Shown here: piece after piece, positions 10,660 to 22,293 of the stretch
Layout: each line of letters begins with the position of its first letter
Numbering within the stretch: position 1 is the stretch's first letter
The notes under the pieces: model-generated
What the model was told of the DNA's origin: nothing
Seen by the model: the letters and a program-made list of their open reading frames with translations, nothing else
Databases searched by the model: none
Assembly: GCA_949282385.1 (NCBI GenBank)
Contig: CASDOP010000010.1
Span: forward strand, 1-64,000
Direction of reading: 5' to 3'
Length of the DNA: 64,000 nucleotides
Source: an uncultured Clostridia bacterium
Lineage (GTDB): Bacteria > Bacillota > Clostridia > Christensenellales > Borkfalkiaceae
Program-made: the position numbers and the translations under genes

Positions 10660-13308
10660 ATGGCAAAAAAGTATTGCTATCTCTTCAGCGAAGGCAACGC
10701 AGGCATGAGGGAGCTTCTCGGCGGCAAGGGCGCAAACCTTGCGGAAATGACTAAAATAGGTCTTCCCGTTCCTCAGGGCTTTACAATCTCTACGGAAGCC
10801 TGCACGCAGTACTATGAAGACGGCAGAGTAATCAATGCAGATATTCAGAAAGAAATAATGGATTACATCGACAAGATGGAAAATATCTGCGGCAAGAAGT
10901 TCGGCGACAAGGAAAATCCCCTGCTCGTTTCCGTTCGTTCGGGCGCACGCGCATCCATGCCCGGCATGATGGATACCATTTTAAATCTCGGTCTCAACGA
11001 AGACGTGGTCGAATCGCTCGCAAAGCGTTCGGGCAATCCCCGTTGGGCATGGGACTGCTACAGAAGATTTATTCAGATGTTCTCCGACGTCGTTATGGAA
11101 GTCGGCAAGAAATATTTTGAAAAACTCATCGACAAGATGAAGGAAGAAAAGGGCGTTGAGTATGACGTGGAACTCACCGCGGACGACCTTAAAACGCTTG
11201 CAAACCAGTTCAAGGCAGAATACAAAGCTCAGATAGGCAGGGATTTCCCCTCCGACCCCAAGGAACAGCTCTTTGAAGCCGTCAAAGCCGTATTCCGCAG
11301 CTGGGACAACCCCCGCGCAAACATTTACCGCATGGACCACGACATTCCCTACTCGTGGGGTACTGCAGTCAACGTTCAGATGATGGCGTTCGGCAATATG
11401 GGCGACGATTGCGGCACGGGCGTTGCGTTCACGCGTAACCCCGCTACGGGCGAAAAAGGACTTATGGGCGAATTCCTCATGAATGCCCAGGGCGAAGACG
11501 TCGTTGCAGGCGTGCGCACGCCTATGCCTATTTCCGAAATGGCTAAGGTTCAGCCCGAAGTGTACAACCAGTTCCTCAAAGTCTGCGATATTCTCGAAGA
11601 GCATTACCGCGACATGCAGGATATGGAATTTACCATAGAAAAAGGCAAACTTTATATGCTCCAGACGCGCAACGGCAAGCGCACCGCCGCCGCTGCGATA
11701 AAGATAGCTTGCGACCTCATCGACGAGGGCATGATTACCGAACAGCAGGCGCTCATGCAGATAGACGCAAAGTCGCTCGACATGCTCCTTCATCCCCAGT
11801 TCGACGCAAAGGCTTTGAAGGAAGCCGATAAGAACAATATCGTCGGCAAGGGTATAGCCGCTTCCCCCGGCGCCGCTGCGGGCGAAATCGTGTTCACCGC
11901 AGAAGACGCGGTCGAAAAGGGCAAGAAGGGCAAGAAGGTCGTTCTCGTCCGCCTCGAAACCTCTCCCGAGGATATCGAGGGCATGAAGTACGCGCAGGGC
12001 ATTCTTACCGTGCGCGGCGGTCAGACCTCTCACGCGGCAGTCGTTGCCCGCGGCATGGGAACGTGCTGCGTATCGGGCTGCGGCGACATTAAGATGGATG
12101 AAGAGAACAAGTGCTTCACCCTCGCAGGCAAAGTTTTCAAAGAGGGCGACAGCCTCTCGCTCGACGGCTCTACGGGTAATATTTACGATTGCCTCATCGC
12201 AACCGTTCCCGCAGACCCCAACTCCGGTTACTTCGGCAGAATTATGGAGCTTGCCGATAAATATAAGGCTCTCGGCGTAAGAACTAACGCAGATACCCCC
12301 AAGGACGCAAAGCAGGCAGCCGCATTCGGTGCGCAGGGCATCGGTCTTTGCCGTACCGAGCATATGTTCTTCGATACCGACAGAATAGGCGCTTTCCGCG
12401 AAATGATCTGCTCGGATACCAAGGCAGAGCGCGAAGCGGCGCTTGAAAAGATAGAGCCTATGCAGCAGGCAGACTTCGAAGGACTTATGGAAGCCCTGGA
12501 AGGACAGCCCGTAACCATTCGTTTCCTCGATCCCCCTCTTCATGAGTTCGTGCCCACCGAAGAGGCAGACATAAAGGCTCTCGCAAAGGCGCAGGGCAAG
12601 ACGGTTGCGCAGATTAAGCAGATTATCTCTGACCTTCACGAGTTCAACCCCATGATGGGACACCGCGGATGCCGCCTTACGGTAACCTATCCCGAAATCG
12701 CCGTCATGCAGACCAAAGCTGTCATAAAGGCAGCCATTGCCGTTCAGAAGCGTCATCCCGACTGGAAAGTCGTTCCCGAAATCATGATACCTTTAGTAGG
12801 CGAAGTTAAGGAATTCGACTTTGTCAAGAAGACCGTCGTAGAAACGGCGGATAAGGTCATTGCCGAAGCGGGCGTACAGCTCAGATACGAAGTCGGCACC
12901 ATGATAGAAATTCCCCGTGCCGCTCTCACGGCAGATGAAATCGCAAAGCATGCAGATTTCTTCTGCTTCGGCACAAACGATTTGACGCAGATGACCTTCG
13001 GCTTCTCGCGCGACGACGCAGGCAAATTCCTGCCTTCGTACTATGCAAACAAGATTTACGAGTTCGACCCGTTCGCAAAGCTCGACACGATCGGCGTAGG
13101 CAAGCTGATGGATATGGCAGTCAAGCTCGGCAAGGGCGCAAACTTCTCGCTTCACTGCGGTATATGCGGCGAACACGGCGGCGATCCTTCGTCCATCGAG
13201 TTCTGCCATGCAATCGGTCTGGACTATGTTTCCTGCTCGCCCTACCGTGTACCCATTGCCCGCCTTGCAGCTGCCCAGGCCAACATTCGTTCGCCACGCA
13301 ATAAATAA
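10660..13308 (+). CDS. ppdK: Pyruvate phosphate dikinase
   Basis: An 882-residue enzyme interconverting pyruvate, ATP and phosphate with PEP, AMP and PPi. The N-terminal ATP-grasp domain runs to about 340. The swivelling domain carries phospho-histidine H458 in GGQTSHAAV. The C-terminal TIM barrel binds PEP/pyruvate and has the catalytic C836 in GICGEHGG. Length matches the family. The start at 10660 follows AAGGAGG; an upstream frame extension has no ribosome site. The last codons (IRSPRNK) are not the native ones: the integrated element supplies them, while the original end (IKNPRK) lies at 20803-20823. The enzyme is expected to remain complete. Confidence 0.96.
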   Translation: MAKKYCYLFSEGNAGMRELLGGKGANLAEMTKIGLPVPQGFTISTEACTQYYEDGRVINADIQKEIMDYIDKMENICGKKFGDKENPLLVSVRSGARASMPGMMDTILNLGLNEDVVESLAKRSGNPRWAWDCYRRFIQMFSDVVMEVGKKYFEKLIDKMKEEKGVEYDVELTADDLKTLANQFKAEYKAQIGRDFPSDPKEQLFEAVKAVFRSWDNPRANIYRMDHDIPYSWGTAVNVQMMAFGNMGDDCGTGVAFTRNPATGEKGLMGEFLMNAQGEDVVAGVRTPMPISEMAKVQPEVYNQFLKVCDILEEHYRDMQDMEFTIEKGKLYMLQTRNGKRTAAAAIKIACDLIDEGMITEQQALMQIDAKSLDMLLHPQFDAKALKEADKNNIVGKGIAASPGAAAGEIVFTAEDAVEKGKKGKKVVLVRLETSPEDIEGMKYAQGILTVRGGQTSHAAVVARGMGTCCVSGCGDIKMDEENKCFTLAGKVFKEGDSLSLDGSTGNIYDCLIATVPADPNSGYFGRIMELADKYKALGVRTNADTPKDAKQAAAFGAQGIGLCRTEHMFFDTDRIGAFREMICSDTKAEREAALEKIEPMQQADFEGLMEALEGQPVTIRFLDPPLHEFVPTEEADIKALAKAQGKTVAQIKQIISDLHEFNPMMGHRGCRLTVTYPEIAVMQTKAVIKAAIAVQKRHPDWKVVPEIMIPLVGEVKEFDFVKKTVVETADKVIAEAGVQLRYEVGTMIEIPRAALTADEIAKHADFFCFGTNDLTQMTFGFSRDDAGKFLPSYYANKIYEFDPFAKLDTIGVGKLMDMAVKLGKGANFSLHCGICGEHGGDPSSIEFCHAIGLDYVSCSPYRVPIARLAAAQANIRSPRNK
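13276..13287 (+). repeat. Left attachment site (attL) in ppdK
   Basis: CAGGCCAACATT, coding for QANI of PpdK. It matches the right copy in 11 of 12 bases. Sequence to the left is ppdK; sequence to the right belongs to the element. Confidence 0.75.
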
Positions 13309-13324
13309 AATTTCATAAACAGAC

Positions 13325-13362
13325 AAAAAAGGCTGTTTTCTCGCGAAAACAGCCTTTTTTTC
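13325..13362 (+). terminator. Element-supplied terminator of ppdK
   Basis: AAAAAAGGCTGTTTTC pairs with its complement around TCG and ends in a T run. It lies inside the element, so the element brings both a replacement ppdK end and a replacement terminator. Confidence 0.88.
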
Positions 13363-13594
13363 TCTAATTTTAATGAAGTTAGGCGTATTTAATGTTGATA
13401 TTTTAACGGAATAAATTACATGTCTTGCATCGCTTGATACTGAAAAATGCTTTTTTACTGCTATTGAAAAGCGTTAAAAAGTATGGTATTATTGTCTCGT
13501 CGCAGTATGAGAGCGGCAAGGTATGTAACACGTTTGGTTGAGTGGAAATGTCTTCTTTGATAATGTATGTTTTAAATCAAAGGAGGTATTTCAA

Positions 13595-15316
13595 ATGAAA
13601 ATTTTTATTGAAAACAAGCAGGAGAGGCGACGCAGAACGGTTGCGTTTTACGGAAGAGTATCCACCGAGCATGAAGAGCAAGTCAATGCTCTCAAAAATC
13701 AGATGCAGTGGTACGACGAGCTTGCCCGCTCCTTTCCGGAATGGGATATAATTGAGAGGTATGTGGATGAAGGCATTACCGGTACGCAGGCAAATAAACG
13801 ACCTGAGTTTATGCGGATGATAGCCGATGCCGTTGCCGGCAAATTTGATTTGATAGTTACCCGCGAAGTATCGCGTTTTGCAAGAAACACAATCGATTGC
13901 CTTGATATGACAAGGCGGTTGAAGAATTATAATGTTGAAGTATTTTTTGTACAGGAGGGGATTTGGACTATGGACAATGAAGGGGAAATGAATCTTACAA
14001 TTAGAGCGATGGTCGCGCAAGAAGAGAGCAGAAAAATGTCGGAACGCGTGAAGGCGGGGCAGGAAATCAGTCGTGCCAACGGTGTGCTATACGGCAACGG
14101 CAATGTATTGGGCTATGACAGGGTAGGCAGTACATATGTGATCAATGAAGATCAAGCAGAAACAGTGCGAATGATTTACAATTTATATGAGTCCGGGCTG
14201 GGTATGCAGGCTATCCGCGATGAGTTGATACGTGCAGGGCGCAAGTGTGCCAGCGGTACGGTAGACTGGGATGTTACCAAAATTCAGCGTTGCCTTAAGA
14301 ACACCATTTACAAGGGCGTGATGGGATATAAAAAGTCATACAGGAACAACTACCTTGACCAGAAGACGATTATCAATCACGACGAAAGTACCTATATGTA
14401 TGTTCAGGGGAATTTTGAACCGATAATTTCGGAAGAACAGTGGGAGCATTGCCGTCAGATACGTGAAAGTCGGACGCGGGTGCGCGTGGTCGAAAAGGAC
14501 GGCAAGTTGGTTTCTGAAAAGAAGGGTGTCAACCAGGTACAGGATGTCTGGACTCGTAAGCTGCGCTGCGCATGCGGCTCTTCCATGAGGAGGAATAAAT
14601 GGCGTGTAAGAAAGGACGGAACCAGACCAGTCGGGTACAGGTGCTACAGCCAACTCAATAAAGGAGCGAATAAGATTTTGGAAGGAAGTGTGGGCTATTG
14701 CAATATCCATTCGGTATGTGGCTGGAAATTGGAGCTGATGGCGGAAATGATTTTCAAAAAAATTTTGAAGGCTGAAAAGCTTTTCGGTATGGCGGTAAAA
14801 GGGTTTATGAAAAGCAGCAAAATGAGCGCGGACGAAGCGAAGCATATGAGAATACGCTATCAGGCTGAAGTCAAGGCAATATCGGGTAAGATAAGCCGGC
14901 TTATCGAAATGCGCATCAATGGCGAACTGAATAAAGAAGAGTATCTCGATATGCGTAAAAAGTTTGAGGAAGAAAAACAACAGGCAGAGCAGTATTTACT
15001 TGAGTATGATAAGCAATCGTCGCCGAAAGCCTGTCCGATAACTGATGCGGAAGCAAAAGAAAGATTACGCGCAATGATAAAAGCCGGTGGCGAGTTTGTA
15101 GAAGAGCTTGTCGGTATATTTGTCTCCAAAATACGGGTTGTCAATGAAACGCAATGCGAATGGTACTTGTCTTTTGACAGTAAAGATGATATAATGGAAG
15201 AAAATAGTTTTAATTTAGCAGTTAAGTATAAAGATGCCTTAGCTTTCCGCAAAAAGCGCAAAGAACTTCTCCGCCAAAACCAGTGGAGCGATTTGAAAGT
15301 GGAAGTGTATTATTGA
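13595..15316 (+). CDS. Large serine recombinase (integrase)
   Basis: A 573-residue large serine recombinase. The N-terminal resolvase domain has the catalytic serine S23 in YGRVSTEHEEQ and the conserved VTREVSRFARN block. A recombinase domain follows (about 170-290), then a zinc ribbon with CACGSS as its first cysteine pair, and a long charged coiled coil near 420-490. The start follows AAAGGAGG at 13580; a longer frame lacks a ribosome site. Such enzymes integrate elements at a short attB core without host factors. Placed next to the left att site, it is the likely integrase of the element. A directionality factor is not evident, unless it is the small ORF at 20268. Confidence 0.93.
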   Translation: MKIFIENKQERRRRTVAFYGRVSTEHEEQVNALKNQMQWYDELARSFPEWDIIERYVDEGITGTQANKRPEFMRMIADAVAGKFDLIVTREVSRFARNTIDCLDMTRRLKNYNVEVFFVQEGIWTMDNEGEMNLTIRAMVAQEESRKMSERVKAGQEISRANGVLYGNGNVLGYDRVGSTYVINEDQAETVRMIYNLYESGLGMQAIRDELIRAGRKCASGTVDWDVTKIQRCLKNTIYKGVMGYKKSYRNNYLDQKTIINHDESTYMYVQGNFEPIISEEQWEHCRQIRESRTRVRVVEKDGKLVSEKKGVNQVQDVWTRKLRCACGSSMRRNKWRVRKDGTRPVGYRCYSQLNKGANKILEGSVGYCNIHSVCGWKLELMAEMIFKKILKAEKLFGMAVKGFMKSSKMSADEAKHMRIRYQAEVKAISGKISRLIEMRINGELNKEEYLDMRKKFEEEKQQAEQYLLEYDKQSSPKACPITDAEAKERLRAMIKAGGEFVEELVGIFVSKIRVVNETQCEWYLSFDSKDDIMEENSFNLAVKYKDALAFRKKRKELLRQNQWSDLKVEVYY

Positions 15317-15340
15317 TTTTATAAGATAAAGGTGATAAGT

Positions 15341-18300
15341 ATGCCAAGGATAACAGAAGAACTGCTTAACAGGCATTTGAAGACTCATTGTGAAAGAGCT
15401 GTTGAGGACAGAGAAGCCATTTCTGTTTTAGTAAATTTTTTGCGTTCAGGCGGGAAGATTAACACTAATTTTGCATGCAATGACAAATGGCCCAATATTG
15501 ATGGAACATTTGAGTTTGTTTCTAATCCCGATGCTTCAAGGCAGCCTGAGCAGAATTTTGTAGTTCAGATAAAAGGGACGCGTGATAATTATACAGAGAA
15601 AGACGGAATAGTAAATTTCCGTCTGCAAAGTCTGGCTTTCCCCGTCTATTTGCTAAAGGAAGTTACGGCAGATCCAGGAATACTTTTTATCGTTTTGCAT
15701 CCTTCAGATCGAGATAAAGAAAGGGTGTTTTGGAAGTATATGTCGGTGGAATTTCTCTCTTCTATTGACTATAGCCACGATAGTTGCGTGATTTCTTTTA
15801 CAAAAGAGGAAGAAATTAAAAATACAAATGAAAGTATTAACAAATTTTGTAAGCAACTTGAGGAAATAAGTAAATTGCATTCTTTTGTTAAGAAGTTGGA
15901 AGATAGGGAGTATTCTGAATCAGATATTATAAAAATTGTCGAAAGATGCAATGATGAAATAACTGAGAGCATAGAAAGACTTGATATTTACAACGATACT
16001 CGAGATGATGTTTCAAGAAGAATCATATCCAGGCTCGAAGAACTTTGTGTGTCGGCACTTTTACTTAATGCTACAAAAATAGGTGAGAAATCAGTAGGAC
16101 TGCCGCTGGCTTTTGAGTTGTCTTTATTAGATAGAAAGACCAAGTATCTCAGCAGCTTTTTGCGTATGCTGATATATATTGGACATCGTATACCGGATGA
16201 TGGACAGTCTGAAAGATTAATGCTAAAGTATTACGACTTTATGTGGCAAATTCGTGATGACTTTAGGCGAAATGGAATAAAAATTCTTTCTAATTTAGAG
16301 AAATTCCCTATAGAGATAAATCAGGTAGATAAATCTTATTACGAAATTGTTGCGCGGGCTATAGAAAGGCATACGAATGACAGAAGTTATTTAAGAAAAT
16401 CAAGATACTATATTGAAAAGCAGACGCCATTCTACGTCAATGGAAAACGGTATTATGAGACGACATTGCAATTAGCCGGTATATATGCTACAAAATTTAA
16501 TCGTATCACAGTATACGCAAAAGAATTTATTCCTTCAAGCTATTCGATTCAGATAGGCTATGATGAATTGGATATTGTGCTCTGGGATGTAAATGCTCAA
16601 ATTAAATTAATTACTAGCTGGAAAGTATCAATTGAACCTGCTTGCCTTAACAAATTGGCTAAAATTTTGATGATTCCTGCTAGGGTTTCCTCAAATTATG
16701 GTGAATACGATGCATTAATGGCGTATCTTACTAAAACAGGAATAAATCTACTGGATTTTATTGATTTTGAGGAAATAGATTTTAATCATGAAATTGATTT
16801 AATTTATGAAAATTCAAATACGAGTAACTTTAAAAAGGTATTGCATAAATTAAGGAATGATTTTAAATCAAATTCCAATGCAATGGGAGGCAATACTATA
16901 CGTTATTTGCTTATAGGAATGAGGGAAGAATCAATTGAAGCGGTTATGCCTGATAATGATGCTTGTTTGCGAAACAGCAAGGCATATTTAAGCAGTAAGT
17001 GTTTTCCCTTTGAAAAGAACCCATTTATTTCTAATTTTGCAGGTAGTAAAACAAGCAAATATACTATAGCCAGGGATGTTGTTCGAGCGGTCGGATATGA
17101 TAAAATTTCAAAAGCGCGGCCTTATTTGACTATAAAGAAATTAATTGGAGAAACTGGAGAAATCTATTTTGATGATAGTGTTATAGAAGAAACACCAAAG
17201 AGTATTGATAGCTTTAATCAAAGTTTGGATTATTGGGAAAAAAGCCAGGGCTTTTCCATTGAGCATAAGAATAAGTTAGTATATATTGATTCATTTGAAA
17301 GGGATACTATCTCTATAATGAAGTATCTTATGATGCTTTCAGTATCCAGTAATAAGGGACAGGAGGCAATCAATAAGAAATATATCAAGGAGCATGAAGG
17401 CCAACTTACCGATACGTTAAAGAAAAAAGCCTTAATGAATGTGTTCGTATCTTCCAGAGTTATGCTTATATATGGCGCTGCTGGCACGGGTAAAACAACG
17501 CTTATAAATCATATCTCTAACCTGATGAGAAATCGGAAAAAACTTTTTTTAACAAAGACTCATGCGGCTCTGCAAAATTTACAGAGGGCAATAGAAAGTC
17601 CGGGTGCAGATTCTGATTTCGTGAGCATAGATAGCTTTACTAGAAAAATACAATTGCAAGATTATGATGTGATTTTTGTTGATGAGTGTAGTACTATAGA
17701 TAATCGCACCATGTCTAAATTTTTTGAAAAGATTGATCCGGATACATTTGTCGTATTGGTGGGAGATACATATCAGCTGGAAGCAATTGATTTTGGGAAC
17801 TGGTTTTCTTATGCAAAAGAGTTGATGCCAGATAATGCAAAAATTGAATTGCTAAATACATGGAGAACTAAACAGCCGAACCTAATAAGTCTTTGGAACG
17901 AGGTGCGCAAAAGAGGTATATTGGTTCGTGAGAAACTTGCAATGGATGGACCTTTTTCTGCGGAAATAGGAAATATAGTTCTTCAAAATTTTTCCGATGA
18001 CGAGGATGAGGTTGTATTGTGTCTGAATTATGATGGTAAATTTGGTTTGAATAACATCAATGCGCTTTTTCAAGCAAATAACTGTAACGTAGCATATACC
18101 TGGCAAGAATGGACTTATAAAGTTGGTGATCATATCCTTTTTACTGAACCGAAGAAAAGGTTTCAGACTGTTTTTTACAATAACTTGAAAGGTAAAATAG
18201 TTGGTATTGAAAAGGATGCGTCAAGCATTACATTTACAATAGATATTGACAGGTTGCTTTCTGAAAGTGATTGTGCAGATGAAGTTGAATACATTGATAC

Positions 18301-18652
18301 GTTTGATGATGCAACTCGTGTTAGATTCACAGTATATGAAGATGATGGCGGTGGTACTGATGAAGAACGTGCGGAGTCTAGAATAAAGTCGGTCGTGCCA
18401 TTTCATTTAGCTTATGCCGTTTCAATTCACAAGGCCCAAGGATTGGAATATAATTCTATTAAGATAATTATACCGGACAGCACTGCGGAAAAAATAACGC
18501 ATGGGATTTTTTATACGGCAATTACAAGGGCAAAAGAGAATTTGAAAATATATTGGAGTCCCGAAACAATGGATTTGATTTTGAAAAATATCATGGAGGA
18601 GCAGAAAGAAAAGAAGAGTTTAGAAATTATAAGAGAAAAACTTTTTAATTAA
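15341..18652 (+). CDS. DUF4365 nuclease / SF1 helicase fusion, candidate defence protein
   Basis: A 1,103-residue protein. The N-terminal region (about 10-160) resembles DUF4365, a PD-(D/E)XK nuclease-like fold, with the acidic WPNIDGTFEF segment and QIKGT as the catalytic Q-x-K. A middle region of about 550 residues has no family I recognise. The C-terminal third is an SF1 helicase: Walker A GAAGTGKTT near 711, Walker B FVDECS, VGDTYQLEAI, and a UvrD_C-type end with HKAQGLEYNSI and FYTAITRAKENLK. A start at 15341 is preceded by AAAGGTG. It lies 24 bases after the integrase gene and may be co-transcribed with it. The architecture recalls single-protein nuclease-helicase immunity enzymes such as Nhi, but homology cannot be tested here. 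Cargo status and architecture suggest anti-phage function (inference). Confidence 0.8.
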   Translation: MPRITEELLNRHLKTHCERAVEDREAISVLVNFLRSGGKINTNFACNDKWPNIDGTFEFVSNPDASRQPEQNFVVQIKGTRDNYTEKDGIVNFRLQSLAFPVYLLKEVTADPGILFIVLHPSDRDKERVFWKYMSVEFLSSIDYSHDSCVISFTKEEEIKNTNESINKFCKQLEEISKLHSFVKKLEDREYSESDIIKIVERCNDEITESIERLDIYNDTRDDVSRRIISRLEELCVSALLLNATKIGEKSVGLPLAFELSLLDRKTKYLSSFLRMLIYIGHRIPDDGQSERLMLKYYDFMWQIRDDFRRNGIKILSNLEKFPIEINQVDKSYYEIVARAIERHTNDRSYLRKSRYYIEKQTPFYVNGKRYYETTLQLAGIYATKFNRITVYAKEFIPSSYSIQIGYDELDIVLWDVNAQIKLITSWKVSIEPACLNKLAKILMIPARVSSNYGEYDALMAYLTKTGINLLDFIDFEEIDFNHEIDLIYENSNTSNFKKVLHKLRNDFKSNSNAMGGNTIRYLLIGMREESIEAVMPDNDACLRNSKAYLSSKCFPFEKNPFISNFAGSKTSKYTIARDVVRAVGYDKISKARPYLTIKKLIGETGEIYFDDSVIEETPKSIDSFNQSLDYWEKSQGFSIEHKNKLVYIDSFERDTISIMKYLMMLSVSSNKGQEAINKKYIKEHEGQLTDTLKKKALMNVFVSSRVMLIYGAAGTGKTTLINHISNLMRNRKKLFLTKTHAALQNLQRAIESPGADSDFVSIDSFTRKIQLQDYDVIFVDECSTIDNRTMSKFFEKIDPDTFVVLVGDTYQLEAIDFGNWFSYAKELMPDNAKIELLNTWRTKQPNLISLWNEVRKRGILVREKLAMDGPFSAEIGNIVLQNFSDDEDEVVLCLNYDGKFGLNNINALFQANNCNVAYTWQEWTYKVGDHILFTEPKKRFQTVFYNNLKGKIVGIEKDASSITFTIDIDRLLSESDCADEVEYIDTFDDATRVRFTVYEDDGGGTDEERAESRIKSVVPFHLAYAVSIHKAQGLEYNSIKIIIPDSTAEKITHGIFYTAITRAKENLKIYWSPETMDLILKNIMEEQKEKKSLEIIREKLFN

Positions 18653-19343
18653 ATTAATGATTTAGGTTGTTGACGAGATACTATTAGCACGTCGTTCTAT
18701 ATATACATGGGAAACAAAATTATCTCGTTATCATGTGTTCGGTGAAAGATAATCAACTAAATGATTATCAAAATTTTTATTGGGCTTTTTGGAGATATGA
18801 TTGCGAACTGTTTGAGATGAGAAAACTTCCATCTGGTATGTTATCGACGTTGTTGAAATTTGGCTAAAAGCAAGGACCAAGGTTGTATTGGGTGTCTATA
18901 AGATACAGCAATTCTTCAGTTGATTGCAATCTGTAAACAACTTAAATTGACCGCGAAAGGCGGGAAAATTAAATAACTGTATTGTGGACGAGGATGGCGT
19001 AAATGCCGTAATTTCCATAATAATAGCAAAAAGACGCTTGTGCATGATTTTGATAAGTGTACTAAAGGGATTGGAACCTCAATCGATAATAAGAGCAATC
19101 TAGAGTGGATTGAGAAAGTATTCTTAAAAAAATATAAAATCTCTTTTTTGCCTTAAGTTTTAAAATGATGTGGGCGTGGTATAATTATAATAGGGAAATA
19201 TTATGGCGTTGGGATTGTTACAGCGAAAAAATATGTAAGAGTAGGGAAAATTTATTATGAAATCTTGCATTGTTTACAATTATGTGCTACAATAATTATG
19301 ACATACACGGATGAGTTGATAACAGGCACTAAGGAGACTTGCA
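18653..19343 (+). other. AT-rich gap with broken or tiny reading frames
   Basis: No gene with start and ribosome site is seen in these 690 bases. The forward strand has several short frames with protein-like composition: 18733-18867 (44 residues, from MCSVKDNQLN to LLKFG, no ribosome site) and an open frame from about 18979 to 19156 containing CGRGWRKCRNFHNN. They are out of frame with each other and may be remains of one or two decayed genes. A promoter for the kinase downstream probably lies near 19180-19320. Confidence 0.35.
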
Positions 19344-20255
19344 ATGACTGGGATTTCAAGACCTCTCTTTGATTTTAAACAGATTCATCCTTTCCTTATA
19401 GAGACATTACAGATGGATACGTTTCTTATGGGGGAAGGATTGTCCGCTGAAGATATTAAAGTGAGGATTTCAGAATATGAAATGATTATTAAAGAGGCAA
19501 ATACTGATTTGTATAAGGTTTTAAAATATAATACTTACGATTGTAAAAAATATAGAATTAATTTTAAAACAGATAGACAAAGAGAGGAATTGCGCAATAA
19601 CATAAAAAAACAATTAATACAATTTATAAGACCCGATGACGATGATGACATATCTTATAATGTAGGGGGCATGCTTCCGAAGTCTGGTTATGTATCGGAG
19701 AATAGGGAAGTTTATATAGTAATAGGACTGCCGGCATCTGGGAAGTCTCATATTGCTGCATTAATAAGTGATGCAACCAATTCAAAATTAATTGATTCTG
19801 ATTTTGTTAAACGTAAATTTCCAGAATTTGTTAAAGTTAATGGGGCATCTTTAGTGCATAAAGAATCAAAAATGATAGCTTCTGAGATTCGTCAGGAAGC
19901 TATAGATAAAGGTGAGAATATAGTTATTCCTATAATTGGAGATGATTTTAATGAACTTGTTGAATTAATAAAAGCATTTAAGACTAGAAGATATAAACCT
20001 TTTGTTATATTAGTAGAATTAGATCGAATTAAAGCTGCTCAACGTGCATTGTTGCGGTTTGCAAAAACAAAACGGTATATACCGTTAAACAATATTGTTG
20101 ATGGATACGCGCAAAATCCAGCGCTTACATATTATAAATTAAGAGAATTCTATCCAAAAGAAAGATGTATGTTGATAGATACTGATGTTGATTTTGCTAT
20201 TCGATATAAAAAGGTTTCATATCACAATTGTAAAGAACTATATGAGATGATTTAA
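19344..20255 (+). CDS. Zeta-toxin-like P-loop kinase
   Basis: A 303-residue protein with a zeta-toxin domain in its C-terminal part: Walker A GLPASGKS (G128-S135), then DSDFVKRKFPEF with the likely catalytic aspartate, and GASLVHKESKMIASEIRQEA, which matches the substrate-binding helix of zeta toxins. Zeta toxins phosphorylate UDP-N-acetylglucosamine and block wall synthesis; related members have other substrates. The N-terminal 125 residues, charged and including a DDDDD run, are an extra domain I do not recognise. AAGGAGA precedes the start. There is no epsilon-like antitoxin upstream; a 59-residue ORF follows 12 bases downstream. The gene is very AT-rich, as expected of transferred DNA. 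Confidence 0.75.
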   Translation: MTGISRPLFDFKQIHPFLIETLQMDTFLMGEGLSAEDIKVRISEYEMIIKEANTDLYKVLKYNTYDCKKYRINFKTDRQREELRNNIKKQLIQFIRPDDDDDISYNVGGMLPKSGYVSENREVYIVIGLPASGKSHIAALISDATNSKLIDSDFVKRKFPEFVKVNGASLVHKESKMIASEIRQEAIDKGENIVIPIIGDDFNELVELIKAFKTRRYKPFVILVELDRIKAAQRALLRFAKTKRYIPLNNIVDGYAQNPALTYYKLREFYPKERCMLIDTDVDFAIRYKKVSYHNCKELYEMI

Positions 20256-20267
20256 GGAGAAAGTAAC

Positions 20268-20447
20268 ATGATAATAACAAATAAATCAAAAAAGAAATGT
20301 TCAGTTAATTTACAATATATTACGAAATGTAAAGTTGTATTAAATCATGAACCTTATGAATCTGCTAAAGATATAATAGCATCGGTTCAGAAAAAGCCTA
20401 ATATAAAGACTTCTCAACACTCGAAAAAATCAATTGCGGTTAGTTGA
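20268..20447 (+). CDS. Small basic protein, possible antitoxin
   Basis: A 59-residue ORF from ATG 20268 to TGA 20447, preceded by AAGGAGA at 20254-20260 with good spacing. It begins MIITNKSKKKCSVNLQYITK and is lysine-rich, with no recognised domain. It follows the zeta-like kinase by 12 bases, so the two are probably one operon. Antitoxin, recombination directionality factor and unrelated small protein are all possible; nothing in the sequence decides. Confidence 0.6.
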   Translation: MIITNKSKKKCSVNLQYITKCKVVLNHEPYESAKDIIASVQKKPNIKTSQHSKKSIAVS

Positions 20448-20793
20448 CATTATAGTAATCATTCTTATACAATATTATTTTGATTAATTCCAATTGAAAA
20501 TTATAAATATTTTCAAAACAAATTAAATCAAATAAAGTGGTATGGAAGATATTATAAAACCTAGTAAATAAAAGTGGTGTAATATTGATAGTTACATGAT
20601 ACTAGTTTGAAACGAATATGGATTTACTCTAAAAAATATTCATGCCATATATTCTATGTGGTATTGCAAACATTAGATATTAAGAGTAATAAAGTTTAAT
20701 ACTCTTTCATCAAATCAGTGAAGAGGTATTTTTTGATTAAAAAGTGGTATTTTAATTGATTTCGCGACCGACCCTTAACCTCATATGACAGTA
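20448..20793. other. AT-rich right end of the element, no gene seen
   Basis: No reading frame with start and ribosome site is seen. AAAGTGGT recurs (near 20536, 20572 and 20742), a loosely spaced direct repeat that could be part of the recombinase attP arm. The function of the segment is unknown. Confidence 0.4.
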
Positions 20794-20823
20794 CAGGCTA
20801 ACATTAAGAACCCCAGAAAGTAA
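20794..20823 (+). pseudogene. ppdK: Displaced native 3' end of ppdK with attR
   Basis: Reads CAG GCT AAC ATT AAG AAC CCC AGA AAG TAA, which codes for QANIKNPRK and a stop. This matches the usual PpdK C-terminus and parallels QANIRSPRNK at 13276-13308. There is no similarity to ppdK upstream of this fragment. CAGGCTAACATT (20794-20805) is the right attachment site. It shows where the chromosome resumes after the element. Confidence 0.85.
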
Positions 20824-21111: not shown

Positions 21112-22293
21112 TTACCACATTCCGAGCGCGAGCTGAACGCCAATGCTGACGAGGGCGATTGTTATCCAGCATACAAGACCGGATAAAATGGGTTTCCAAC
21201 CCGACTTTACCAGTTTGACGACATTTGTATTAAGTCCTATTGCCGCCATGGCGAGGGTAATCATAAATTTACCTACGTCGGAGAGGAAGGAGGACACGTT
21301 TCCGCCTATATGCAGCACGGGGAAGAGCCATGTGTTTACAACTGCCGCAACGAGGAAGAAAATTACGAACCAGGGGAAAACCTTTACAAAGCTGAAAGTA
21401 AAGCCTTCTTCTCCGCCTCCGTTTTTGGCAGATTTCTTTGCCTTGACAAGCTGAAAAATTGCAAGAGCCAGAGTTATGGGAATTATTGCAAGCGTCCTTG
21501 TAAGTTTGACTATGGTCGCATACTGCAGGGCAACGTCGCTACCCGTCATGCTTTCCCAGCTCTGACCTGCGGCGACGACGGAGGAAGTGTCGTTTATAGC
21601 CGTGCCTGCCCACATTCCGAAGCCTGTGTCCGACATGCCGAGCGCCTGACCGATAGCGGGGAATGTGAATGCGGCAATGACGTTGAAGAGGAAAATTACC
21701 GAAATCGATGTGGCGACTTCGCTGTCTTTTGCGCGAATGACGGGTGCGGTTGCGGCTATTGCAGAGCCGCCGCAAATGGATGACCCAACGCCCACGAGAG
21801 TGGCGGTGTTGGAGGGCAGCTTAAGGATTTTAGCCATTAAAAACGCCATGACGAGCGAGGTGGTTATTGTCGAAAGGATTATAAGCAGGGAATTTCCGCC
21901 GACTTCCAAGACGGTTATAAAGTTCATTCCGAAGCCGAGGAAGACTATGCTCGTCTGCAATATCTTTTTAGATGTGAATTTAATGCCGCCTTCAAGCCAT
22001 TTCGGTCTTTTGAAAAAAGCTATAATCATGCCGAACACAATGGCAAAAATCGCGCTGCCTATTACGGGTACGAGCTTGCCCAAAAACCATGCGGGTACGG
22101 CTATTACTGCGCAGAGCAATAGTCCCGGCGCAATGCTTTTTACTGTATCGAGTACTTTATTAAAAAATTTGCCCGCTTTCGACGGTTCGTTTAAGTTTGT
22201 ATCGGCAGTAGTGCATTCTTCGCTCGCTGCTGCCGCACTTTCGTCTTCTGCTGGAAAGCTTTCGGGCTGTTTTTCTTCTCTCTGTTCTTCCAT
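21112..22293 (-). CDS. YeiH/UPF0324 family putative sulfate exporter
   Basis: A 393-residue polytopic membrane protein of the YeiH (UPF0324, Cons_hypoth698) family. About 45 acidic N-terminal residues precede ten or so membrane segments. Family landmarks include SSICGGSAIAATAPVI and GTAINDTSSVVAAG. These proteins are annotated as putative sulfate exporters, but the substrate is not firmly known for most. Gene stands alone, just downstream of the site where the ppdK end was displaced. AAAGAGAGAA before the start acts as a weak ribosome site. Confidence 0.85.
   Translation of the reverse strand: MEEQREEKQPESFPAEDESAAAASEECTTADTNLNEPSKAGKFFNKVLDTVKSIAPGLLLCAVIAVPAWFLGKLVPVIGSAIFAIVFGMIIAFFKRPKWLEGGIKFTSKKILQTSIVFLGFGMNFITVLEVGGNSLLIILSTITTSLVMAFLMAKILKLPSNTATLVGVGSSICGGSAIAATAPVIRAKDSEVATSISVIFLFNVIAAFTFPAIGQALGMSDTGFGMWAGTAINDTSSVVAAGQSWESMTGSDVALQYATIVKLTRTLAIIPITLALAIFQLVKAKKSAKNGGGEEGFTFSFVKVFPWFVIFFLVAAVVNTWLFPVLHIGGNVSSFLSDVGKFMITLAMAAIGLNTNVVKLVKSGWKPILSGLVCWITIALVSIGVQLALGMW

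What the first reader, a model, noticed from the sequence alone, without database searches (positions are those of the whole stretch)
19344..20447. Zeta-like kinase with a novel N-terminal domain and a 59-residue ORF behind it
Seen: GLPASGKS and the DSDF...GASLVHKES blocks of zeta toxins, a 125-residue N-terminal extension, no epsilon-like gene upstream, and a 59-residue basic ORF with a good ribosome site 12 bases downstream. Inference: a toxin-antitoxin pair in reversed order, or a toxin whose own N terminus is the antitoxin (fused type), with the small ORF serving another role.
Basis: partly seen in the sequence, partly recalled or inferred. Interest (0 to 1): 0.7.

Follow-up and report, generated by a model that had tools for sequence, protein, structure and literature searches.

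The report
Zeta-like kinase with conserved small partner
A mobile element inserted in a bacterial chromosome carries a toxin-like kinase followed by a gene for a tiny protein, and the same two-gene arrangement turns up in all 13 relatives found, in four bacterial phyla; it is probably an unnamed toxin-antitoxin or phage-defence pair with the toxin gene first.

Summary
The kinase (19344-20255) is an intact zeta-fold P-loop kinase (Pfam Zeta_toxin 51 bits; best solved match zeta, Z 15.5), and a 59-aa basic ORF follows 12 nt after its stop. The "novel 125-residue" N terminus is shared by twelve relatives, and about half of it corresponds to zeta's own N-terminal part; the real extra piece is about 60-68 residues, three helices. 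All 13 family members (Bacillota, Bacteroidota, Pseudomonadota, Fusobacteriota, a prophage contig) have a same-strand small ORF within -20..+62 nt of the stop, against 8 of 93 background genes. Ten of the 13 small proteins are detectably related; the window's own is not. The family is rare and sporadic, often beside integrases, in prophages or beside defence genes. In the window it sits in a 7.5-kb serine-recombinase element inserted in the 3' end of ppdK, with a PADLOC candidate defence helicase. Best reading: a toxin-first toxin-antitoxin (possibly anti-phage) module, laid out like AvrRxo1:Arc1, with the N-terminal helical domain as a second, built-in control. Toxicity, substrate, binding and defence are untested. 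New variant of a known kind.

The parts
19344..20255 (+). zeta-fold P-loop kinase, 303 aa (Walker K134, DSD 151-153, GA..VHKES 167-175)
   Evidence: AlphaFold2 pLDDT 88.8; best PDB match zeta 1gvn_B Z 15.5; 13-member family with K134, D151 and D153 invariant
19344..19547 (+). N-terminal helical domain, about residues 1-68 (helices 11-21, 24-30, 35-59): the part with no counterpart in zeta
   Evidence: secondary structure; block pLDDT 81-96 from residue 11 to 60; zeta alignment starts at residue 69; residues R6, F17, E46, T64 invariant in 13 members
20268..20447 (+). small basic protein, 59 aa, pI 9.9, SD AAGGAG, in the position of the family's conserved downstream partner
   Evidence: shuffles 4/500; pairing 13/13 versus 8/93 background; sequence homology of this particular copy to the other partners not shown (334/1000 shuffles score as high)
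15332..18652 (+). neighbour in the same element: PDC-S53 candidate phage-defence protein (SF1/RecD-like helicase), 1106 aa
   Evidence: PADLOC PDC-S53 E 3e-274; relatives lie beside restriction-type or other genes but not beside the kinase
13538..15316 (+). large serine recombinase/integrase of the element
   Evidence: Pfam Resolvase + Recombinase, phrog_95 integrase E 3e-100
13276..20805 (.). integrative element of about 7.5 kb inserted in the 3' end of ppdK; end cores CAGGCCAACATT (13276-13287) and CAGGCTAACATT (20794-20805)
   Evidence: the native ppdK tail seen in congeners lies at the right end of the element; element GC 0.356 against 0.536 for ppdK

Best explanation
A mobile two-gene module. 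The first gene makes a zeta-fold kinase that, when unrestrained, phosphorylates a small cellular metabolite (probably a nucleotide-sugar or nucleotide, as zeta does with UDP-GlcNAc and AvrRxo1 with NAD) and stops growth. The second, closely spaced gene makes a short, fast-evolving, mostly basic helical protein that binds and restrains the kinase, i.e. a toxin-antitoxin pair with the toxin gene first, as in AvrRxo1:Arc1. The conserved N-terminal helical domain probably adds in-cis control or forms the docking face for the partner. The pair travels on integrative elements and prophages and most likely stabilises them or acts in abortive phage defence. Shown: the predicted fold, the invariant catalytic motifs, the conserved gene pair, relatedness of ten of the thirteen partners, the element around the window's copy. 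Inferred: toxicity, substrate, binding, antitoxin role, defence role.
For: Zeta fold: Zeta_toxin model matched by 11 of 11 members; best solved matches zeta Z 15.5, PezT 14.6, AvrRxo1 13.7. Walker K134 and the Asp of the DSD block (D153, aligned with zeta's DND) invariant in 13 members from four phyla. Downstream small ORF in 13 of 13 against 8 of 93 background genes and 1 of 5 other standalone zetas. Ten of 13 partners are related in leave-one-out profile tests, 0-18 of 1000 shuffles, with a shared hxxhYxxExxE helix. Mobile settings: serine-recombinase element, tyrosine integrase next door (L191) and P2-type tail/baseplate genes around the L203 copy. Defence neighbours: AbiEi/AbiEii upstream in L190, Cas9-Cas1-Cas2 downstream in L222, PDC-S53 in the window. 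Sporadic: only the window's own genome among 61; no second full-length case in 398 phylum genomes; none but the seed genome in 120 and 61 genomes of two other genera. Precedent for the gene order: PMC4938570.
Against: No toxicity data. The partner profile matches no epsilon, PezA or Arc1 chain among solved structures. The kinase fold is shared with harmless metabolite and RNA kinases (6-phosphofructo-2-kinase, polynucleotide kinase, Z about 12). The fused kinase-partner model leaves the partner at low confidence (pLDDT 37-67), so no docking is shown. The window's own partner is not demonstrably homologous, and its kinase has Ile where nearly all others have Lys197. Defence neighbours were seen in a few loci only and not tested statistically.
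Confidence: 0.5

Rival explanations
1. Cis-regulated toxin: the N-terminal helical domain is the antitoxin (EzeT-type fused system) and the small ORF does something else, such as sensing a phage or repressing the operon.
For: The N-terminal region is present in all 13 members with 12 invariant residues up to position 110 and is modelled with high confidence. EzeT has an 83-residue N-terminal inhibitory domain with toxicity on its deletion (PMC4803016), about the size of the extra part here.
Against: EzeT needs no second gene, yet here a small partner is kept in 13 of 13 loci. The N-terminal region evolves only somewhat faster than the kinase domain (mean identity 34% versus 45%), while the partner evolves very fast, as antitoxins often do.
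Confidence: 0.2
2. A non-toxic kinase with a small adaptor or substrate, e.g. a defence or RNA/nucleotide-modifying enzyme acting on phage products, with the small basic protein as a nucleic-acid- or phage-binding subunit.
For: Fold also close to polynucleotide kinases, PSTK and 6PF2K (Z about 12); partners are mostly basic, pI 9-11 in 11 of 13; defence neighbours in several loci; zeta-type domains with the same GA..VHEES block are common inside very long phage proteins.
Against: Zeta, PezT and AvrRxo1 rank above the other kinases (Z 15.5-13.6 versus 12.4 and below); partner charge is not conserved (L176 pI 5.2, L202 pI 6.7).
Confidence: 0.2
3. The family is a real pair, but the window's copy is a decaying remnant: the kinase is the most divergent member and its small ORF is a degenerate or replaced partner.
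For: Window kinase at most 37% identical to any other member while the others reach 44-55%; nearly invariant Lys197 replaced; small ORF shortest but one and without the partner motif.
Against: Intact ORF with all invariant catalytic residues, a well-predicted fold, a good ribosome site, a small ORF in the canonical place, and an otherwise intact element.
Confidence: 0.1

Closest known systems
AvrRxo1:Arc1 (zeta-fold toxin-antitoxin of plant-associated bacteria)
   Same: zeta-fold kinase with an N-terminal extension (VIA Z 13.7, model 61-298); toxin gene first with a short ORF immediately downstream (about 81-98 aa); low GC, sporadic, differing flanks (PMC4938570)
   Different: about 15% identity in the structural alignment; AvrRxo1 is longer (about 378-421 aa); the partners found here show no sequence match to Arc1 in the PDB set; contexts here are integrative elements, prophages and defence genes in unrelated phyla
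epsilon/zeta (pSM19035) and PezAT
   Same: kinase fold, Walker A, catalytic Asp block
   Different: antitoxin gene lies upstream in those systems; here none is upstream and a small gene follows; extra N-terminal three-helix part of about 60-68 residues; no match of the partner profile to epsilon or PezA chains
EzeT of E. coli
   Same: N-terminal extension of similar size on a zeta kinase (PMC4803016)
   Different: EzeT is solitary; this family always has a downstream small gene; EzeT's sequence was not compared here
zeta-toxin domains of phage polyvalent/head proteins (e.g. HVTV-1 gp115, PHROG 2071/16619)
   Same: the D.D..K..PEF....GA..VHEES block
   Different: those domains mostly lie inside proteins of 400-2700 aa without this N-terminal domain or small partner

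Membership tests
Zeta toxin family (PF06414) | profile match above curated cut-off | tested here: met
   51.2 bits against 22.3; all 11 members of A1 match the model at E up to 0.1
Zeta toxin family (PF06414) | zeta/PezT-like P-loop kinase fold | tested here: met
   1gvn_B Z 15.5, rmsd 3.3, 201 aligned; 2p5t_D Z 14.6
Zeta toxin family (PF06414) | Walker A lysine and catalytic aspartate kept in relatives | tested here: met
   K134, D151, D153 invariant in 13 members
Zeta toxin family (PF06414) | growth arrest by phosphorylating UDP-GlcNAc (or another metabolite) | not testable with these tools
   needs expression and a kinase assay
epsilon/zeta or PezAT operon | epsilon/PezA antitoxin gene directly upstream | tested here: not met
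   691 nt upstream hold no + strand ORF above 44 aa; the next gene is the PDC-S53 helicase
AvrRxo1:Arc1-type toxin-first module | short ORF immediately downstream in conserved pairing | tested here: met
   13 of 13 versus 8 of 93 background
AvrRxo1:Arc1-type toxin-first module | downstream protein homologous to Arc1 | tested here: inconclusive
   profile of 13 partners finds no Arc1 chain in the PDB set at E up to 5; fast-evolving small proteins, so absence is weak evidence
AvrRxo1:Arc1-type toxin-first module | downstream protein binds the kinase and relieves toxicity | not testable with these tools
   fused model gives the partner pLDDT 37-67
EzeT-type fused toxin | N-terminal domain that inhibits the kinase in cis | not testable with these tools
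   a conserved, well-predicted N-terminal helical domain exists; its function needs a deletion test
PADLOC-listed defence systems | match of kinase or small ORF to a PADLOC-DB model | tested here: not met
   kinase and small ORF: no match; family members: only single weak P-loop matches. Only the neighbour matches (PDC-S53)

The most novel reading that the evidence does not exclude
An unnamed, widely scattered two-gene anti-phage toxin-antitoxin system: a zeta-fold kinase with its own class of N-terminal helical domain, held in check by a fast-evolving small helical partner encoded downstream that may also be the phage trigger, carried on integrative elements together with other defence genes.
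Probability: 0.35. Interest if true: 0.7.

Novelty: new variant of a known kind. Interest (0 to 1): 0.55.

Why it matters
Zeta toxins are usually found with an upstream epsilon-type antitoxin or as orphans whose neutralisation is unexplained. This family gives a conserved second example of the toxin-first layout outside the AvrRxo1 lineage, with 13 natural pairs from four phyla to test, and a kinase that may carry both a built-in and a separate regulator. It also puts a pair with no listed defence model next to known and candidate defence genes on small integrative elements, so its effect on phages can be tested directly.

Tried and rejected
Single-sequence searches found no true relative: genome contigs and IMG/VR scans, relatives and class genomes (the class hits are shikimate kinases and noise), plasmids and phages (kinase domain only).

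The idea that the kinase is a fixed companion of PDC-S53 was rejected: the PDC-S53 loci read around the gene, including a second copy in the same genome, have restriction-type, HipBA or unrelated genes but no zeta kinase.

The PF06414 family search gave canonical or unrelated zetas in the class. Homology of the window's own small ORF to the other partners was tested twice and not shown. Small-ORF-only rows could not be aligned to the fused sequence, and the fused prediction says nothing on docking. Family members were not found in plasmids, phages or E. coli genomes. An empty-site comparison through the sulfate-exporter-like gene at 21112-22293 failed because it is not syntenic; ppdK worked. 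Promoter-like sites near the pair are no more frequent than in shuffles, and no Rfam RNA lies in the element. The N-terminal domain was not predicted and searched alone, so its fold relatives are untested.

Full report
What was claimed and what is there. The ORF 19344-20255 (+) encodes 303 aa with GLPASGKS, IDSDF and GASLVHKES, and a 59-aa ORF (20268-20447) begins 12 nt after its stop behind AAGGAG. Pfam calls the kinase Zeta_toxin at 51.2 bits, residues 121-253. An ORF as long as the small one arises in that position in 4 of 500 dinucleotide shuffles. The gap of 691 nt upstream holds no epsilon-like gene; the next gene is a 1106-aa helicase.

Fold. AlphaFold2 on the 11-member family alignment gives pLDDT 88.8 and pTM 0.87. 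The best solved matches are zeta (1gvn_B, Z 15.5, rmsd 3.3, 201 residues), PezT (14.6) and AvrRxo1 (13.7), ahead of 6-phosphofructo-2-kinase and polynucleotide kinases at about 12. The zeta alignment starts at model residue 69 and the AvrRxo1 alignment at 61, so the part with no counterpart in zeta is about 60-68 residues (helices 11-21, 24-30, 35-59), not 125.

Relatives. Single-sequence searches found none. A degenerate DNA pattern of the conserved block found 140 loci. Most are zeta domains inside phage proteins of 400-2700 aa, but eleven hits are full-length homologues with the same N-terminal domain (two of them copies of one locus), and two more members came from an alignment search of IMG/VR (L203) and from a genus search (L217). 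The family of 13: window, L200 Fusobacteriaceae, L186 Desulfosporosinus, L181 Clostridia, L190 Prevotella, L191 Methylomicrobium, L175 Burkholderia multivorans, L202 Bacteroidales, L197 Pygmaiobacter, L176 Gammaproteobacteria, L183 Alistipes, L217 (unnamed, same genus as L183), L203 (prophage contig). Forty-seven residues are invariant, including K134, D151, D153, H172 and E174 and, in the N-terminal region up to residue 110, R6, F17, E46, T64, R71, R80, L83, I87, R96, D100, G108 and G109. The window's kinase is the most divergent (31-37% to the rest, others up to 55%) and has Ile where nearly all others have Lys197.

The pair. Every one of the 13 has a same-strand ORF of 58-123 aa starting between -20 and +62 nt of the kinase stop. 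In the same loci, 8 of 93 other genes of at least 200 aa have such a neighbour, and 1 of 5 standalone zetas without the N-terminal domain does. Under that background rate 13 of 13 is out of reach of chance. The small proteins diverge fast, but in leave-one-out profile tests ten of 13 score above all or nearly all of 1000 shuffles (0-18 of 1000). L191, L175 and the window's own P0002 do not (138, 447 and 334 of 1000). The shared element is a C-terminal helix of the form hxxhYxxExxE. Eleven of 13 are basic. No Pfam family and no solved structure matches them convincingly. So the gene pairing is firm; the identity of the window's own small ORF as a partner rests on position.

Setting. The window's pair lies in an element of about 7.5 kb. 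In most of some twenty congeners ppdK ends in or near AAQANIKNPRK*; in the window the native tail DNA lies at 20794-20823 and ppdK carries a replaced tail, so the stretch between the cores CAGGCCAACATT (13276) and CAGGCTAACATT (20794) was inserted into the 3' end of ppdK. It holds a large serine recombinase, PDC-S53, the kinase and the small ORF. GC is 0.356 against 0.536 for ppdK. A congener (G015, L231) carries the left end of a similar element at the same place. PDC-S53 relatives elsewhere lack the kinase, so the two look like independent cargo. Other family loci: AbiEi/AbiEii upstream in Prevotella, Cas9-Cas1-Cas2 downstream in Bacteroidales, a tyrosine integrase and HTH/AAA genes in Methylomicrobium, a P2-type prophage between tail and baseplate genes (L203), and a recombinase-bearing virus contig for Pygmaiobacter. 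The family is sporadic: absent from 60 relatives, no second full-length case in 398 phylum genomes, none but the seed genome in 120 and 61 genomes of two genera, and one extra in a genus of 11.

Mechanism. Established knowledge: zeta toxins phosphorylate UDP-GlcNAc; AvrRxo1 phosphorylates NAD (PMC5491322, from its title and abstract) and is neutralised by Arc1, encoded downstream (PMC4938570); EzeT carries an N-terminal inhibitory domain of about 83 residues (PMC4803016). The anatomy here combines both features: a downstream small gene in every case and a conserved N-terminal helical domain. The best single reading is a toxin-first toxin-antitoxin module on mobile elements, with a likely stabilising or anti-phage role. 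The antitoxin role, substrate, toxicity and any defence role are inferences. A fused kinase-partner model did not place the partner with confidence, and no literature on this family was found in the library searched.

Verdict. It is a new variant of the zeta-type toxin-antitoxin kind, and no known family name fits it exactly.

Noticed in passing
window 13276-20823: The element inserted in the 3' end of ppdK swaps the tail of pyruvate phosphate dikinase (AAQANIRSPRNK* instead of AAQANIKNPRK*); the native tail is left at the right end. A congener (L231) has the left end of a similar element at the same site.
   Followed up: yes
L039 5717-9859 (own genome, contig C12): A second PDC-S53 copy in the same genome lies directly downstream of a HipA/HipB-type pair, so this candidate defence helicase sits beside a toxin-like kinase twice in one genome.
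   Followed up: partly
L190 127-1730: In Prevotella the kinase pair lies downstream of an AbiEi/AbiEii toxin-antitoxin pair.
   Followed up: partly
L222 7833-14752: In a Bacteroidales genome the kinase pair lies directly upstream of a Cas9-Cas1-Cas2 operon.
   Followed up: partly
L063-L174 (IMG/VR loci): Zeta-type kinase domains with the same GA..VHEES block are embedded in phage proteins of 400-2700 aa in over 100 virus contigs; their role is unexplained.
   Followed up: no
window 20444-20473: An 11-of-12 sigma-70 promoter-like site overlaps the stop of the small ORF and points to a stretch with no long ORF before the element end.
   Followed up: no
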